A stretch of 30,615 nucleotides of DNA from positions 1 to 30,615 of the IMG/VR virus record IMGVR_UViG_3300042987_000147. The stretch is one strand, 5' to 3'. The position numbers and the translations under genes were made by a program. Each line of letters starts with the position of its first letter. The first letter of the stretch is position 1. The notes under the pieces are model-generated. The model worked only from the letters and a program-made list of their open reading frames with translations. It was not told where the DNA came from and did no database searches. Below, in pieces: positions 5,139 to 29,503 of the stretch. The stretch is from a virus.

Positions 5139-7598
5139 ATGTCAGGCATTATGAGTCTGCTGCTGGGCCAAGTCGTCAGCGCAGCGGCATACACAGAATA
5201 CAAAATTTTCACCGCATCCGGTAACTGGACTTGTCCGACCGGCGTGACGGAGGTGGAATACCTTGTCGTCGCGGGTGGTGGTGGTGGTGGCGGTGTTTCT
5301 GGCGCAGGTGGCGGGGCTGGTGGCTTTCGCACAGGCACAGGGTTTTCTGTTACTGCCGGAACAAATTACAGCATTACGGTCGGTGGCGGCGGCGCTGGAT
5401 CATCGCTCAACACCCGAGGCGTAAGCGGTAGCGATTCGGTATTCAGTACCATCACCAGCACCGGCGGTGGTGGCGGCGCATCAAGCAATACAGCGCCAAA
5501 CTCAACCGGAGCAAATGGCGGTTCTGGTGGCGGCGGCGCATACACATATTCAGCGCCAAACTTTACTTCTGCCCCCGGCGGTTCTGGAAATACTCCGTCG
5601 GTCAGCCCTTCGCAGGGATCAAACGGAGGCGCGGGTTCTGCATCTGGCCCGAACTATGGCGCTGGCGGCGGCGGTGGTGCATCGGCTACTGGCAGCGGCG
5701 GCACATCCACGGCAGGTGGTAATGGCGGCGACGGCACGGCCTCAAGCATTTCTGGCGCATCTGCAACATACGCGGGCGGCGGCGGCGGCGCAGGACAAGG
5801 CGGCGGCACGGGCGGCAATGGGGGCGCAGGCGGTGGCGGCGCAGGCCAACCTATTGCCGACGGCACGGCTGGCACGGTCAATACCGGCGGCGGTGGTGGC
5901 GGTGGCGGTCAAACTGCGGCTCCGGGCTTCGTAAACAAAACGGGCGGCGCAGGCGGCTCCGGCATCGTCATCCTTAAGTACACCGTACCCGTGCAGTCTG
6001 TCGTCGCCACGTTCACATCAAGCGGCACATGGACTGCTCCGAGCGGTGTCACCGAGGTTGAGTACCTTGTGGTGGGCGGTGGCGCGGGTGGTGGCGGTGG
6101 CAGCGGTGGTGGTGGCGGTGCTGGTGGATTCCGTACTGGCACGGGATTATCTGTTACGGCAGGAACTGACTACACCGTAACGGTTGGCGGTGGTGGCACC
6201 GCTGGCGGCGTAAATGGGTACGGCGGCAACGGCAATAATTCCGTTTTTAGCACTATCACCAGCACAGGTGGCGGTGGTGGAGCAACTTATGTTGGGGTGC
6301 CGGGCAACGCCAACGGCAACAATGGCGGTTCTGGTGGCGGCGGTTCATATCAATTTACGCCGGGGCCGGGTGCGCCGTATTCCGATAGCACAGGCGGCAG
6401 CGGCAATACTCCAAGCGTTGCGCCGTCTCAAGGCAATAATGGCGGCGCTGGCAAAGGGGCCGTGCCTAACTTTGGCGCTGGTGGCGGTGGCGGCGCGTCG
6501 GCTGTAGGTGCTGCCGGAACGACTACTACAGGCGGCAACGGCGGCAACGGTACGGCTTCATCCATTTCTGGCGCATCTGCAACCTACGCAGGCGGTGGTG
6601 GTGGCGGCACAACATTCGGTGGCACAGCAGGCACTGGCGGCTCTGGCGGTGGAGCAAATGGCTCAACCAGCAACACAGCTCCATCTGCTGCTACGGCTAA
6701 TACTGGTGGTGGCGGTGGTGGTGGTGCTTACGCATCTGCCCCCGGTGGTGCTGGTTCCGCAGGCGGCTCCGGCATCGTCATCCTGAAATACAACATCGGC
6801 TCTGCCACGATCTTCACCTTCAAGTCCTCGCAGAAGTGGACTGCCCCTGCTGGCGCGGTGAGCGTTGACTATTTGGTGGTGGCCGGTGGCGGTGGGGGTG
6901 GTGCCGGTATCGGCGGTGGCGGCGGTGCAGGCGGTATGCGTACCGGAACGGCGCTGTCTATCACGGCAGGTAGCGAATACACCATAACGGTTGGAGCGGG
7001 CGGTAGTGGCGCTACATCGGAAGGAACCAAAGGCAGCGACGGGTCTAATTCAGTATTTAGCACGATAACCTCTACTGGCGGTGGCGGCGGTGGCGGCACA
7101 ACAGGTGTCTCTAGCGCAAACGCAACGGGTCGTACGGGCGGCTCCGGTGGCGGTAACTCTCACCAAGGCAACGGTGCTGGCGGAGCCGGGAACACCCCAT
7201 CTACATCTCCTTCGCAAGGCAACAATGGCGGCTCGGGATTGGCGGCAGGAACGCCTTACGGTGCCGCAGGTGGCGGCGGTGGCGCATCTGCAGTTGGAAG
7301 CAATGCCGCAAGCACCAATGCAGGCGGCGGTGGTAACGGCACAGCCTCATCTATTTCCGGCGGTAGCGTCACTTATGCTGGCGGTGGTGGCGGTTCGGTC
7401 GGCGGTAGCGGGTTTGGCTCCGTAGGTAGCGGAGGCACAGGCGGTGGCGGTGCTGGTGGCCCATCAGGCGGTGCGGGCGTTGCGGGAGGAACTAATCTTG
7501 GCGGCGGTGGCGGTGGTGGATTTGGTTATGCCCCAAGCGTCACAAACGGCGGTGCAGGCGGCTCCGGCATCGTAATTCTAAAGGTCAACTTCACATGA
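5139..7598 (+). CDS. Giant glycine-rich virion protein with three tandem modules
   Basis: This 819-aa protein is about one third or more glycine. It consists of three copies of one ~268-270 residue module. Each opens with a beta strand (VTEVEYLVVAGG at residue 36, again at 304, AVSVDYLVVAGG at 574), then GGAGG(F/M)RTGT, SVFSTITSTGGGGG, (G)NTPS.SPSQG.NGG, SSISG.S.TYAGGGGG, and closes with GGSGIVILK. Such Gly-rich domains occur in phage fibres and adhesins; in the gp38 adhesin of phage S16 comparable stretches form polyglycine-II helices. I infer a receptor-binding or surface adhesin. The start follows the upstream stop by three bases; the stop overlaps the next ATG. Confidence 0.8.
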   Translation: MSGIMSLLLGQVVSAAAYTEYKIFTASGNWTCPTGVTEVEYLVVAGGGGGGGVSGAGGGAGGFRTGTGFSVTAGTNYSITVGGGGAGSSLNTRGVSGSDSVFSTITSTGGGGGASSNTAPNSTGANGGSGGGGAYTYSAPNFTSAPGGSGNTPSVSPSQGSNGGAGSASGPNYGAGGGGGASATGSGGTSTAGGNGGDGTASSISGASATYAGGGGGAGQGGGTGGNGGAGGGGAGQPIADGTAGTVNTGGGGGGGGQTAAPGFVNKTGGAGGSGIVILKYTVPVQSVVATFTSSGTWTAPSGVTEVEYLVVGGGAGGGGGSGGGGGAGGFRTGTGLSVTAGTDYTVTVGGGGTAGGVNGYGGNGNNSVFSTITSTGGGGGATYVGVPGNANGNNGGSGGGGSYQFTPGPGAPYSDSTGGSGNTPSVAPSQGNNGGAGKGAVPNFGAGGGGGASAVGAAGTTTTGGNGGNGTASSISGASATYAGGGGGGTTFGGTAGTGGSGGGANGSTSNTAPSAATANTGGGGGGGAYASAPGGAGSAGGSGIVILKYNIGSATIFTFKSSQKWTAPAGAVSVDYLVVAGGGGGGAGIGGGGGAGGMRTGTALSITAGSEYTITVGAGGSGATSEGTKGSDGSNSVFSTITSTGGGGGGGTTGVSSANATGRTGGSGGGNSHQGNGAGGAGNTPSTSPSQGNNGGSGLAAGTPYGAAGGGGGASAVGSNAASTNAGGGGNGTASSISGGSVTYAGGGGGSVGGSGFGSVGSGGTGGGGAGGPSGGAGVAGGTNLGGGGGGGFGYAPSVTNGGAGGSGIVILKVNFT
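5187..7593 (+). repeat. Three in-frame DNA repeats of ~804-810 bp inside the glycine-rich gene
   Basis: The same codon in the VEYLVV motif lies at 5244, 6048 and 6858, giving periods of 804 and 810 bp. Copies run roughly 5187-5987, 5988-6791 and 6792-7593. The 3' end of each (GGCGGCTCCGGCATCGT) is identical or nearly so at the DNA level, around 5952, 6765 and 7558. The middles have drifted. This pattern fits duplication followed by divergence and offers sites for homologous recombination. Confidence 0.8.
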
Positions 7599-26826: not shown

Positions 26827-26984
26827 TTACCGAGTCGCTCCAACATCTCGCGTGCCTGGTACGCACGCAACGGCGGCACCGTGTCCGCCTTGATCCACTT
26901 CGCCACAGCCTGTCTGCTGACGCCAAACCGGCGTGCGATCTCAGAGGCTGACCCAAACGCTTTTAGCAATGTCTTGATGTCCAT
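26823..26984 (-). CDS. Cro-like helix-turn-helix repressor, 53 aa
   Basis: A start at ATG 26984 gives MDIKTLLKAFGSASEIARRF, then GVSRQAVAKWIKADTVPPLRAYQ and a final REMLERLGK. This is the layout of P22 Cro/YdaS-type regulators: a first helix, the turn (ASEIARRFGVSRQAVAKW, ~13-30), then a VPP.RAY. motif. A longer start (TTG at 27020) is unlikely because the promoter -35 lies there. The probable target is the inverted repeat at 27009-27020. It presumably controls both divergent transcripts. It heads the minus operon. Confidence 0.72.
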   Translation of the reverse strand: MDIKTLLKAFGSASEIARRFGVSRQAVAKWIKADTVPPLRAYQAREMLERLGK

Positions 26985-26991
26985 GTAGCGG

Positions 26992-27020
26992 ACGATACGC
27001 AACGTGAGTTGACAAGTCAA
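26992..27020 (-). promoter_or_regulatory. Minus-strand promoter for the repressor operon, nearly leaderless
   Basis: On the minus strand TTGACT (27020-27015) and TATCGT (26997-26992) are 17 bp apart, with 5/6 and 4/6 matches to consensus. The expected start of transcription, ~7 bases after the -10, falls at about 26985, next to the A of the repressor ATG (26984). No room is left for a ribosome-binding site, so the mRNA is probably leaderless. Confidence 0.55.
27009..27020. promoter_or_regulatory. Inverted-repeat operator formed by the two -35 boxes
   Basis: TTGACAAGTCAA is an inverted repeat with TTGAC/GTCAA arms and a 2-bp centre. The two arms are the -35 boxes of the plus and minus promoters, back to back. 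One bound dimer of the Cro-like protein (or another regulator) would cover both. I saw no second clear copy nearby. Confidence 0.5.
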
Positions 27021-27036
27021 ATATCATGCGTATGAT
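27009..27036 (+). promoter_or_regulatory. Strong plus-strand early promoter
   Basis: TTGACA (27009-27014, perfect) and TATGAT (27031-27036, 5/6) are 16 bp apart. The predicted transcript starts near 27043. Its leader begins with a short GGGG/CCCC hairpin (27044-27047/27053-27056), then CACGGAG as ribosome-binding site for the ATG at 27069. It should drive the recombination genes to the right. Confidence 0.65.
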
Positions 27037-27068
27037 TGCTCTCGGGGATTGGCCCCACGGAGATAAAC

Positions 27069-27284
27069 ATGAGTGAACAGCAAGAAGGCCGTGACCTTCA
27101 AGAAATGTCTGAAGCCTATGCCGAAGCGCAAGTCCGCGCTGAGATTGCCGCCTGGCAATGCCTCGTCGGCATCCAAGAGTTAAACCGCATCGAGCAGGAA
27201 ACCGCGACCGCATGGTCGAATGGTCTGCGTGAAATCATTGACGCCATCGACAAGGCGCGAGCCGAACTTGGGAGAACACAATGA
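27069..27284 (+). CDS. Unknown small early protein, 71 aa
   Basis: The start is the ATG at 27069, with CGGAG 7 nt upstream, rather than an earlier in-frame ATG that overlaps the -10 box. The protein is acidic and helical, with QQEGRDLQEMSEAYAEAQV and ELNRIEQETATAWSNGLREI. No family is recognised. It is the first gene under the early promoter, and its stop overlaps the ERF start by four bases. First-gene position and small acidic character would suit a host-takeover protein or a recombination helper, but this is speculation. Confidence 0.55.
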   Translation: MSEQQEGRDLQEMSEAYAEAQVRAEIAAWQCLVGIQELNRIEQETATAWSNGLREIIDAIDKARAELGRTQ

Positions 27285-27826
27285 GTCAGTCAGATTCTAT
27301 TGCTGAACTTGCATACGCGTTAGCCAAAGCGCAGGCCAACATTACAGGTGCGCTCAAAGACAGTAGCAATCCTTTCTTCAAGTCCAAGTACGCTGACCTT
27401 GCAGCGTGCTGGGATGCGTGCCGCAAGCCGCTTACCGACAACGGCCTCGCCGTCATCCAGACCATCGAAATCGGCGAGAGTCACGCAGTGCTGGTGACGA
27501 CGCTCGCTCACTCAAGTGGTGAATGGATTAAGTCGTTCTGCCCGATTCTCACCAAAGACGACAGCCCGCAGGGGCAGGGCAGCGGCATTACCTACGCACG
27601 GCGCTATGCGCTCGCAGCGATGGTTGGCCTCGCGCAGATTGACGATGACGCAGAAGCCGCGCAGGGCCGCAACAAGCCTGCGCCGCAGCAGGATGCGGGA
27701 TTGCTCGCCAAGATCGCTGCGACGACGACGGCAGAGGAACTGAGCAAGCTTTACAACAGCGTTCCGCAGGACGTGCGTGAGGCGCACATCGAGGTCTTCA
27801 AGGCTCGCAAGAAGGCACTTGCATGA
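27281..27826 (+). CDS. erf: ERF-family single-strand annealing recombinase
   Basis: This encodes 181 aa. Hallmarks of the ERF family are clear: NPFFKSKYADLAACWDACRK, LTDNGLAVIQTI near residues 50-62, and the GSGITYARRYALAAMVGLAQ (~100-120) then DDDAEAA. P22 Erf promotes annealing of complementary single strands and circularises the infecting genome. The C-terminal ~55 residues form a small separate helical part. With the YqaJ-type exonuclease and the SSB-like protein downstream, it makes up a phage recombination set. Coupled to neighbours by ATGA overlaps at both ends. Confidence 0.9.
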   Translation: MSQSDSIAELAYALAKAQANITGALKDSSNPFFKSKYADLAACWDACRKPLTDNGLAVIQTIEIGESHAVLVTTLAHSSGEWIKSFCPILTKDDSPQGQGSGITYARRYALAAMVGLAQIDDDAEAAQGRNKPAPQQDAGLLAKIAATTTAEELSKLYNSVPQDVREAHIEVFKARKKALA

Positions 27827-28047
27827 GCATCCACTACTACAGCCAGATGACCGAAGGGGAATTGGTGGGGCACGTCTTGGCACTTGCTGACGATGCCTCC
27901 GAACTCTCGCAAGTGCTGGCGCTGCGGCTACGGTCGCAGACCAAACTGCGTGCCGATGCAGAGATGCGGGCGCAGATTGCACAGGAGCGTATCTATCGCT
28001 TAGAGCGCGAGATACGCGAACTTAAAACTTTGGCAGAAAGAGAATGA
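27823..28047 (+). CDS. Small coiled-coil protein, 74 aa
   Basis: This encodes 74 aa with an ATGA overlap to ERF. The body has MTEGELVGHVLALADDASEL, then a long coiled-coil of Arg, Glu, Ala and Gln (ADAEMRAQIAQERIYRLERE). No motif for an enzyme or DNA-binding fold is visible. It is followed by the first pentamer tract rather than directly by another gene. A partner or regulator of the recombinases is a reasonable guess; I do not recognise a family. Confidence 0.55.
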   Translation: MSIHYYSQMTEGELVGHVLALADDASELSQVLALRLRSQTKLRADAEMRAQIAQERIYRLEREIRELKTLAERE

Positions 28048-28055
28048 TTTTGCAC

Positions 28056-28115
28056 GGCTGGGCTGGGCGCGGCAGGGCGAGGCATGGCGGGGCGTGGCAG
28101 GGCGAAGCAAGGCAT
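28056..28115 (+). repeat. Pentamer tract A: 12 in-register GGCNN units
   Basis: From 28056 every fifth base starts a GGCNN unit (GGCTG, GGCTG, GGCGC, GGCAG and so on), with one AGC variant, up to GGCAT at 28111-28115. No insertion or deletion breaks the phase over 60 bases. It is followed by GG, a run of T's and TAGGAG, the ribosome-binding site of the TTG-start gene at 28142. This 94-bp gap has no other feature. Confidence 0.85.
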
Positions 28116-28141
28116 GGTTTTTTTCATAGGAGTGAACTAAA

Positions 28142-28708
28142 TTGAAAACGATTAACGTAGAAATTCGCGGCAACACGCCGCTGTTGATTCACCGTTTTGC
28201 GGAGCAAGCAGAGCAAGCAAAGGCTACTCGGCGCGTCGTCGTAGACAGTTACGACCCGCGAGCCGAAGCGACAAAAAATGCTTACATTGCAGCAGACGGC
28301 ACGTTTTATTTTTCGGCGTTTGCGATTCCGAACGCGATGGCGTCGGCAGGCAGCAATCACAAGATGCGCGGCTCTCGCAAGACGTTGCGATTCGTGGTGC
28401 CGAGCGCAGTGCGCGTGACGGCAGACACCGTAACAATCTTGAATGGCTCCGGCCCCGCGCAGAACTTTGAGGTAGATGGTCGGCCTGTGACGATCCCGGC
28501 GACCAAGGGGCGCATCATGCGATACCGCCCTCGATTCGATTGTTGGGGTGCAGAATTTTCGTTAGTGGTAAACGACCAGATGTTGTCCCTTGAGGATGCC
28601 CAACGCTTGCTTACTGAGGCAGGTGAGTCTATCGGCATCGGTGATTTTAGACCTGAGAAGCGCGGCCCCTTTGGCACATTTCGGGTGACGAGGTTTGAAG
28701 AGGTTTAA
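28142..28708 (+). CDS. Recombination-module protein with glycine-rich loop, 188 aa
   Basis: The start is a TTG, the first codon in frame, with TAGGAG ~9 nt before it. It opens with a beta strand and loop, INVEIRGNTPLLIHRF, then ARRV-like segments and HKMRGSRKTLRFVVPSAVRV, a VDGRPVTIPATKGRIMRYRP stretch, and IGIGDFRPEKRGPFGTFRV at the end (165-182). I know this pattern from uncharacterised phage proteins beside ERF and exonuclease genes. A strand-start plus Gly-rich end also recalls Cas7/RAMP-like folds, but that is a weak resemblance. Flanked on both sides by pentamer tracts. Confidence 0.6.
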   Translation: MKTINVEIRGNTPLLIHRFAEQAEQAKATRRVVVDSYDPRAEATKNAYIAADGTFYFSAFAIPNAMASAGSNHKMRGSRKTLRFVVPSAVRVTADTVTILNGSGPAQNFEVDGRPVTIPATKGRIMRYRPRFDCWGAEFSLVVNDQMLSLEDAQRLLTEAGESIGIGDFRPEKRGPFGTFRVTRFEEV

Positions 28709-28716
28709 CTAGATAC

Positions 28717-28866
28717 GGCACGGCAAGGCCAGGCTAGGCATGGCAAGGCCAGGCTAGGCATGGCAGGGCGAGGCGAAGCATGGCAAGGCTTGGAGTGGCA
28801 GGGCGAGGCAAGGCTGGGCTACGCGGTGCTTGGTGGGGCATGGTAAGGCTCGGCATGGCATGGCAT
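28717..28866 (+). repeat. Pentamer tract B: 30 in-register GGCNN units
   Basis: The phase is unbroken over 150 bases: GGCAC at 28717, through to GGCAT at 28862-28866. About five units depart from GGC (AGCAT, GGAGT, CGCGG, TGCTT, GGT-types) but keep the 5-base step. A 20-base block, GGCAA GGCCA GGCTA GGCAT, occurs twice in a row (28722-28741 and 28742-28761). The tract ends in GGATTTTTTT, AGGGAG and the exonuclease start. The 180-bp gap holds nothing else that I can see. Confidence 0.88.
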
Positions 28867-28888
28867 GGATTTTTTTAGGGAGACAAAA

Positions 28889-29503
28889 ATGGATCAGCGA
28901 ACACCAGAATGGTTTGCCGCACGCTGCGGCAAGGTGACGGCCTCGAAAGTTTCTGAGATTGCAGCAAAGGTGAAGGGCGGCAAAGCGGCTGCATCTCGTA
29001 AGAATTACATGGCTCAATTGGTTTGCGAAAGGCTCACGGGTAAACCCAAGGAAGGGTTTACTGATGCAGCAATGCAGTGGGGAACGGATCAGGAACCGTT
29101 TGCCCGTGATGCCTACTCCGCAAAGACGGGCGAGTTGGTGACAGAAATCGGCTTTGTGCAGCACCCGCGCATTGCTATGGCAGGCGCGTCACCAGATGGC
29201 ATTGTGTCACCGAGTGGCATAGTTGAGATTAAATGCCCAAACACGGCAACACACATTGAATACTTGCTCGATCCCGAGCCGCCACAAGAATATTTTTATC
29301 AAATGCAGTGGCAGATGGCGTGTTGCATGGCGGACTTTTGCGATTGGGTGTCCTACGACCCGCGTATGCCCGCGCACTTGCAGTTGCTGATCGTTCGCAT
29401 ACCGCGTGACGATGACACCGTGCGAATGCTCGAACACGAAGTAGAGACGTTTTTGGCAGAGTTGGATGAAAAGGTCAAAGCATTGCAGGAGTTGAAAGTA
29501 TGA
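28889..29503 (+). CDS. YqaJ / lambda-exonuclease-like recombination nuclease
   Basis: This encodes 204 aa from the ATG at 28889, 8 nt after AGGGAG. It has RTPEWFAARCGKVTASKV, then AMQWGTDQEPFARDAY with Glu69, and the nuclease core GASPDGIVSPSGIVEIKCP with Asp103, Glu113 and Lys115, then YFYQMQWQMACC with the usual Gln. This is the alkaline exonuclease that resects 5' strands so that ERF can anneal. All active residues are present. An earlier in-frame ATG at 28865 lies in the repeat and is not used in my view. Confidence 0.92.
   Translation: MDQRTPEWFAARCGKVTASKVSEIAAKVKGGKAAASRKNYMAQLVCERLTGKPKEGFTDAAMQWGTDQEPFARDAYSAKTGELVTEIGFVQHPRIAMAGASPDGIVSPSGIVEIKCPNTATHIEYLLDPEPPQEYFYQMQWQMACCMADFCDWVSYDPRMPAHLQLLIVRIPRDDDTVRMLEHEVETFLAELDEKVKALQELKV

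What the first reader, a model, noticed from the sequence alone, without database searches (positions are those of the whole stretch)
28056..28866. Two unbroken arrays of GGCNN pentamers flank a recombination gene
Tract A (12 units) and tract B (30 units) keep exact 5-base phase with no indel, although the last two bases vary freely and a few units depart from GGC. Free variation in NN with strict spacing implies selection on the GG(C) period, not simple slippage. They are not coding and not CRISPR. I know of no named element like this. They may be protein-binding arrays, recombination sites for the phage ERF/YqaJ system, or RNA structures.
Basis: partly seen in the sequence, partly recalled or inferred. 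Interest (0 to 1): 0.85.

Follow-up and report, generated by a model that had tools for sequence, protein, structure and literature searches.

The report
Phage VIPR guide-RNA arrays around vipr
The two five-base-period tracts are very probably guide RNAs of a phage-borne VIPR system, a small CRISPR-like RNA-guided system first described in a 2026 preprint, placed either side of the gene for its Vipr protein; the kind is known, but this copy has an unusual layout.

Summary
In detail: tract A (28056-28115, 12 units, 11 exact GGC) and tract B (28717-28866, 30 units, 24 exact GGC) keep perfect 5-nt phase, far beyond chance. The gene between them is not a recombination gene. It is a 188-aa Vipr: a profile of its relatives matches the solved SUSP1 Vipr (PDB 36pp) full length at E=1.6e-21, and its predicted fold matches Csm3/Cas7 RAMPs (Z up to 11.9). 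The tracts fit the vrRNA code of VIPR systems (GGY/NN; preprint PMC13142463). Across 173 distinct arrays beside vipr homologues, NN carries 3.86 of 4 bits. 87 of 90 vipr loci have same-strand arrays nearby; 85 of 120 loci found by the array pattern alone encode Vipr, against 0 of 111 control loci. Relatives show the A-vipr-B cassette with different NN content, absent (empty site), or reduced to one array without vipr. Not settled: no natural target was found for A or B, and no hairpin tail or vap gene was recognised. The arrays run straight into the next gene's ribosome-binding site. Verdict: a new member of a known, very recent kind, with a leader-embedded layout.

The parts
27009..27036 (+). 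sigma-70-like promoter (TTGACA-16-TATGAT), the only + strand candidate found upstream of the operon in 26900-29000
   Evidence: consensus scan only; not evidence of function
27281..27826 (+). ERF-family single-strand annealing protein (context, not part of the VIPR cassette)
   Evidence: Pfam ERF E=2.4e-24, PHROG 2324
27823..28047 (+). 74-aa ORF of unknown function (orf74), last gene before the cassette
   Evidence: conserved next to yqaJ in relatives with and without the cassette
28053..28117 (+). tract A: candidate vrRNA, 13 YNNGG repeats (12 GGCNN units at 28056-28115)
   Evidence: same place in L129-L131 with different NN
28118..28124 (+). T7 run ending tract A, just before the vipr ribosome-binding site; short candidate tail
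   Evidence: sequence; same in L129
28142..28708 (+). vipr: 188-aa Vipr, single-domain Cas7-like RAMP (TTG start)
   Evidence: PDB 36pp SUSP1 Vipr E=1.6e-21; AF2 pLDDT 86; Csm3 Z 11.9
28714..28868 (+). tract B: candidate vrRNA array, 31 YNNGG repeats (30 units at 28717-28866); longer than the published 9-16, so perhaps two or more overlapping guides
28869..28876 (+). AT7 run ending tract B, just before the yqaJ ribosome-binding site; short candidate tail
   Evidence: sequence; same in L129 and L332
28889..29503 (+). YqaJ-like exonuclease (context)
   Evidence: Pfam YqaJ E=5.7e-29 for 28865-29500

Best explanation
The tracts are the guide-RNA (vrRNA) arrays of a phage VIPR system and the gene between them is its effector, Vipr. 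Shown here: homology and fold of the protein, the repeat code, the linkage of the two across phages, and gain, loss and turnover of the cassette at one site. Inferred from the preprint: the tracts are transcribed, Vipr subunits assemble along the RNA holding each GGY, and the NN pairs read double-stranded DNA with one skipped base between pairs, blocking transcription of a rival phage, prophage or satellite. Inferred and specific to this clade: the arrays lie inside the early message directly before ribosome-binding sites, so the guide must be cut out of, or used within, the mRNA, and Vipr binding may also limit translation of its own gene.
For: Vipr identity: profile hit to PDB 36pp over 184 positions; full-length alignment with the SUSP1 protein including the glycine-rich loop; Csm3/Cas7 fold. 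SUSP1 homologue flanked by GGY arrays. Linkage both ways: 87/90 vipr loci have same-strand arrays, 85/120 array-selected loci have vipr against 0/111 controls. NN entropy 3.86 of 4 bits in 173 arrays. Relatives with 96% identical Vipr have wholly different NN series in phase. Code and mechanism: PMC13142463.
Against: No natural target of A or B found. No hairpin tail, unlike SUSP1 vrRNAs. Tract B has 31 repeats, beyond the published 9-16. No vap gene recognised beside vipr. Expression not tested.
Confidence: 0.92

Rival explanations
1. The arrays act mainly in cis as mRNA leader elements: Vipr binds the GGY repeats on the message and represses translation of vipr and yqaJ, so the NN variation is neutral and there is no DNA target.
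For: The arrays end directly at ribosome-binding sites; 146 of 227 array clusters have an ORF start with a ribosome-binding site within 80 nt of the 3' end, against 42 at an arbitrary offset. No target found for A or B.
Against: Tested VIPR systems use NN for DNA targeting (PMC13142463). Whole NN series are replaced between relatives with 96% identical Vipr while only GGY persists. Many clades have long or multiple arrays, more than a leader switch needs. A cis role could coexist with a guide role.
Confidence: 0.05
2. The tracts are recombination sites of the phage ERF/YqaJ system.
For: They sit beside ERF and yqaJ; L332 looks like the product of recombination between A and B.
Against: Only 4 of 80 yqaJ loci have arrays, whereas arrays follow vipr in phages with other neighbours. 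The L332 event needs only sequence similarity between the tracts.
Confidence: 0.01
3. A pentanucleotide microsatellite grown by replication slippage, with no function.
For: Part of B repeats a 20-nt block, so some growth by duplication is likely.
Against: GGY fixed with near-random NN, strict phase, and linkage to vipr in widely divergent phages.
Confidence: 0.01

Closest known systems
VIPR system of Escherichia phage SUSP1 (type II; PMC13142463; PDB 36pp)
   Same: Homologous Vipr of about 20 kDa with RAMP fold and glycine-rich loop; intergenic GGY/NN pentamer arrays on both sides of vipr; phage-encoded
   Different: About 25% protein identity and a separate clade; mostly GGC instead of GGT; arrays inside the operon with only a T7 run before the next ribosome-binding site; tract B of 31 repeats; no vap recognised
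Class 1 CRISPR-Cas effector backbone (Csm3/Cas7)
   Same: RAMP fold of the protein, Z up to 11.9 over 163 residues; proposed subunit assembly along a guide RNA
   Different: No repeat-spacer array and no cas operon; guide read through gapped dinucleotides
TRAP-bound leader RNAs (GAG/UAG repeats; from memory, an analogy only)
   Same: About 5-nt periodic triplet repeats in an mRNA leader bound by a repeating protein
   Different: Different triplet and unrelated protein; not tested here

Membership tests
VIPR | Vipr protein homologous to known Vipr | tested here: met
   PDB 36pp SUSP1 Vipr, E=1.6e-21, profile positions 1-184
VIPR | RAMP fold (RRM core) with glycine-rich loop | tested here: met
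   AF2 pLDDT 86; Csm3 matches Z up to 11.9; conserved GIGDFRPEKRGPFGTF loop
VIPR | GGY/NN (YNNGG) tandem repeats in gaps flanking vipr | tested here: met
   13 repeats in A, 31 in B, directly on both sides of vipr
VIPR | NN hypervariable while GGY is conserved | tested here: met
   Relatives L129-L131 and 173 arrays near vipr homologues; arrays were selected on GGY
VIPR | 9-16 repeats per vrRNA | tested here: inconclusive
   A fits (13); B has 31 and may hold more than one guide; transcript ends unknown
VIPR | Structured 3' tail after the repeats (as in SUSP1) | tested here: inconclusive
   Only a T7 run before the ribosome-binding site; clade relatives L133, L137 and L148 have hairpin-like tails
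VIPR | Accessory vap gene beside vipr | tested here: inconclusive
   SUSP1 vap1 has no tblastn match in the window record; the neighbours are ERF, orf74 and yqaJ; the models of vap2-6 were not available
VIPR | DNA target matched by NN with 1-nt skip | tested here: inconclusive
   No credible target in IMG/VR scans, held loci or 398 genomes; host unknown
VIPR | vrRNA expressed and bound by Vipr | not testable with these tools
   Needs RNA sequencing or pull-down
CRISPR-Cas | Repeat-spacer array with cas genes | tested here: not met
   Pentamer arrays only; no cas family among the ten operon proteins scanned with Pfam and no PADLOC match for the five tested

The most novel reading that the evidence does not exclude
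In this clade the guide arrays are mRNA leaders: loading of Vipr on them both makes the guide complex and shuts off the message that carries it; and recombination between the two look-alike arrays can delete vipr, leaving an orphan array (as in L332) that could borrow another phage's Vipr or act as a decoy for it.
Probability: 0.25. Interest if true: 0.65.

Novelty: new member of a known kind. Interest (0 to 1): 0.5.

Why it matters
VIPR is proposed as a relative of CRISPR RAMPs that branched before them. Here an intact locus, an empty site, relatives with exchanged NN series and an array-only relative all occur at one position, a natural series for asking how guides are acquired, replaced and lost. 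The leader-embedded layout raises a directly testable question: how vrRNAs are processed and whether Vipr regulates itself.

Tried and rejected
Target searches (1-nt skip, exact 8- or 9-unit windows, viral contigs): A units 2-10 gave 0 hits; A 4-11, A 6-13, B 9-16 and B 20-27 gave 16-38 hits each, whose extension beyond the seed was at about chance level and never near full length; the rest of B was tested only against held loci. Comparison of 0-3 nt skips for all held arrays against held loci: an excess at skip 1 comes largely from low-complexity guides and appears with reversed NN order too, so I do not count it as evidence. The best L129-A hit, in L360, is AT-rich low complexity. 398 genomes of one phylum for A: none. 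Two scripts failed or were wrong (a timeout; zeros from a counting bug) and were redone. Literature search by repeat letters found nothing relevant. Rfam, PADLOC and NCBIfam gave nothing useful for vipr. RNA folding: A no more stable than shuffles (z -0.3), the two halves of B z -3.2 and -2.4, probably in part from the internal 20-nt duplication; not taken as a functional structure. SUSP1 Vipr did not appear in the fold search, whose library ends in April 2026; it was found by sequence.

Full report
Observation. The window holds 32 four-unit matches against 0.54 expected; shuffling the tracts' own bases never gives an in-phase GGC run above 3, while 10 and 12 are seen. The record is a 30.6-kb IMG/VR virus contig whose portal is most like those of P22-like phages, the two nearest from a lake and a spring.

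How widespread. A literature search for pentanucleotide repeats in phages led to the VIPR preprint (PMC13142463): vrRNAs of alternating GGY/NN, a RAMP protein called Vipr, and DNA recognition in which the NN pairs are read with one skipped base.

The protein between the tracts. The 188-aa ORF has no Pfam family and falls in PHROG 4652, function unknown. tblastn finds it in Felixounavirus-type phages, SUSP1, mycobacteriophages, and Gordonia and Pseudomonas phages. In SUSP1 the homologue ALH47069 is followed by a 147-aa gene, and the non-coding gaps on both sides hold GGY arrays, as published. A profile of 37 relatives hits PDB 36pp 'SUSP1 Vipr protein' at E=1.6e-21. The AF2 model (pLDDT 86) matches Csm3/Cas7-type RAMPs. 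The loop motif GIGDFRP..FGTF of the window is GVGDWRP..FGRF in SUSP1. In a tree the window sits in a clade apart from SUSP1 and the Pseudomonas phages; which of the seven published types this is could not be decided.

Linkage. Of 90 loci with vipr, 87 have same-strand arrays within 1.5 kb; one array in all lies on the opposite strand. Conversely 85 of 120 loci fetched only by the array pattern encode Vipr, and 0 of 111 control loci do. The loci are not all independent, since several contigs come from the same lineages. Across 173 distinct arrays (2841 units) the G, G and pyrimidine positions are 94.5%, 98.3% and 98.5% conserved, while the two N positions have 1.91 and 1.98 of 2 bits. Arrays were selected on GGY, so its conservation is partly by construction; the near-maximal NN entropy is not.

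A comparison series at one site. L129/L130/L131: both tracts in the same places, vipr 96% identical in protein and 87% in DNA, but tracts of 18 and 14 units with a different NN series; L131 differs from the other two in tract A by a single base, an NN base. L334, L341 and L345: no cassette; orf74 is followed directly by yqaJ, with a TGATG stop-start overlap in L334 and L341. L332: yqaJ 99% identical in protein, no vipr, one 8-unit array whose 5' flank resembles that of A and whose 3' flank is that of B, as expected if A and B recombined and deleted vipr; a single-array ancestor is also possible. So the cassette behaves as a removable unit, and arrays follow vipr rather than yqaJ (4 of 80 yqaJ loci have arrays).

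Layout. Tract A begins a few bases after the orf74 stop and ends in T7 and the vipr ribosome-binding site; B begins just after the vipr stop and ends in T7 and the yqaJ ribosome-binding site. The only + strand promoter-like site in 26900-29000 is at 27009-27036. Over 227 array clusters, 146 have a ribosome-binding site and ORF start within 80 nt of the 3' end, against 42 at an arbitrary offset and 15 beyond the 5' end on the other strand. In L151 and L155 the last GG of the array forms part of the likely ribosome-binding site. This suggests, without proving it, that many vrRNAs are made from mRNA leaders and that Vipr may repress its own message.

Targets. Decoding A and B with the one-base skip gave no credible target. 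The host is unknown and the collections are incomplete, so this neither supports nor excludes the guide role. That the tracts guide DNA recognition here therefore rests on homology to the tested VIPR systems.

Judgement. What it works like: an RNA-guided, RAMP-based interference system. Whether it is a VIPR: yes on the protein and the repeat code; undecided on tail, vap and target. It is a new member of a recently described kind, with a layout that deserves experiments.

Noticed in passing
L332:2637-2690: Solo 8-unit array between orf74 and yqaJ with no vipr; 5' flank like tract A, 3' flank like tract B. Possible excision scar or orphan guide; the contig is only 4.3 kb, so vipr elsewhere is not excluded.
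   Followed up: partly
L211:3130-3400 (Listonella phage phiHSIC): Beside a Vipr homologue the pentamer arrays read GCANN instead of GGYNN, a different consensus; the preprint mentions related consensuses.
   Followed up: no
L007:6311-7010: A 700-nt in-phase array of about 140 GGCNN units, far beyond single-guide length.
   Followed up: no
L133:1364-1770 and L137:1078-1744: Multi-array loci in the window's clade in which most arrays end in a repeated hairpin-like tail (TTTCTCTGGCGAGAAATTTTTAT), while the last one ends at a ribosome-binding site.
   Followed up: partly
35 of L001-L120 (e.g. L009, L075, L081): Array-selected loci without a Vipr profile hit in the stored stretch; a few (e.g. L017, L026) are low-complexity pattern hits, others may be orphan arrays, truncated contigs or more distant Vipr types.
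   Followed up: partly
window 5139-7598: 819-aa very glycine-rich protein with internal repeats, probably a tail fibre or adhesin.
   Followed up: no
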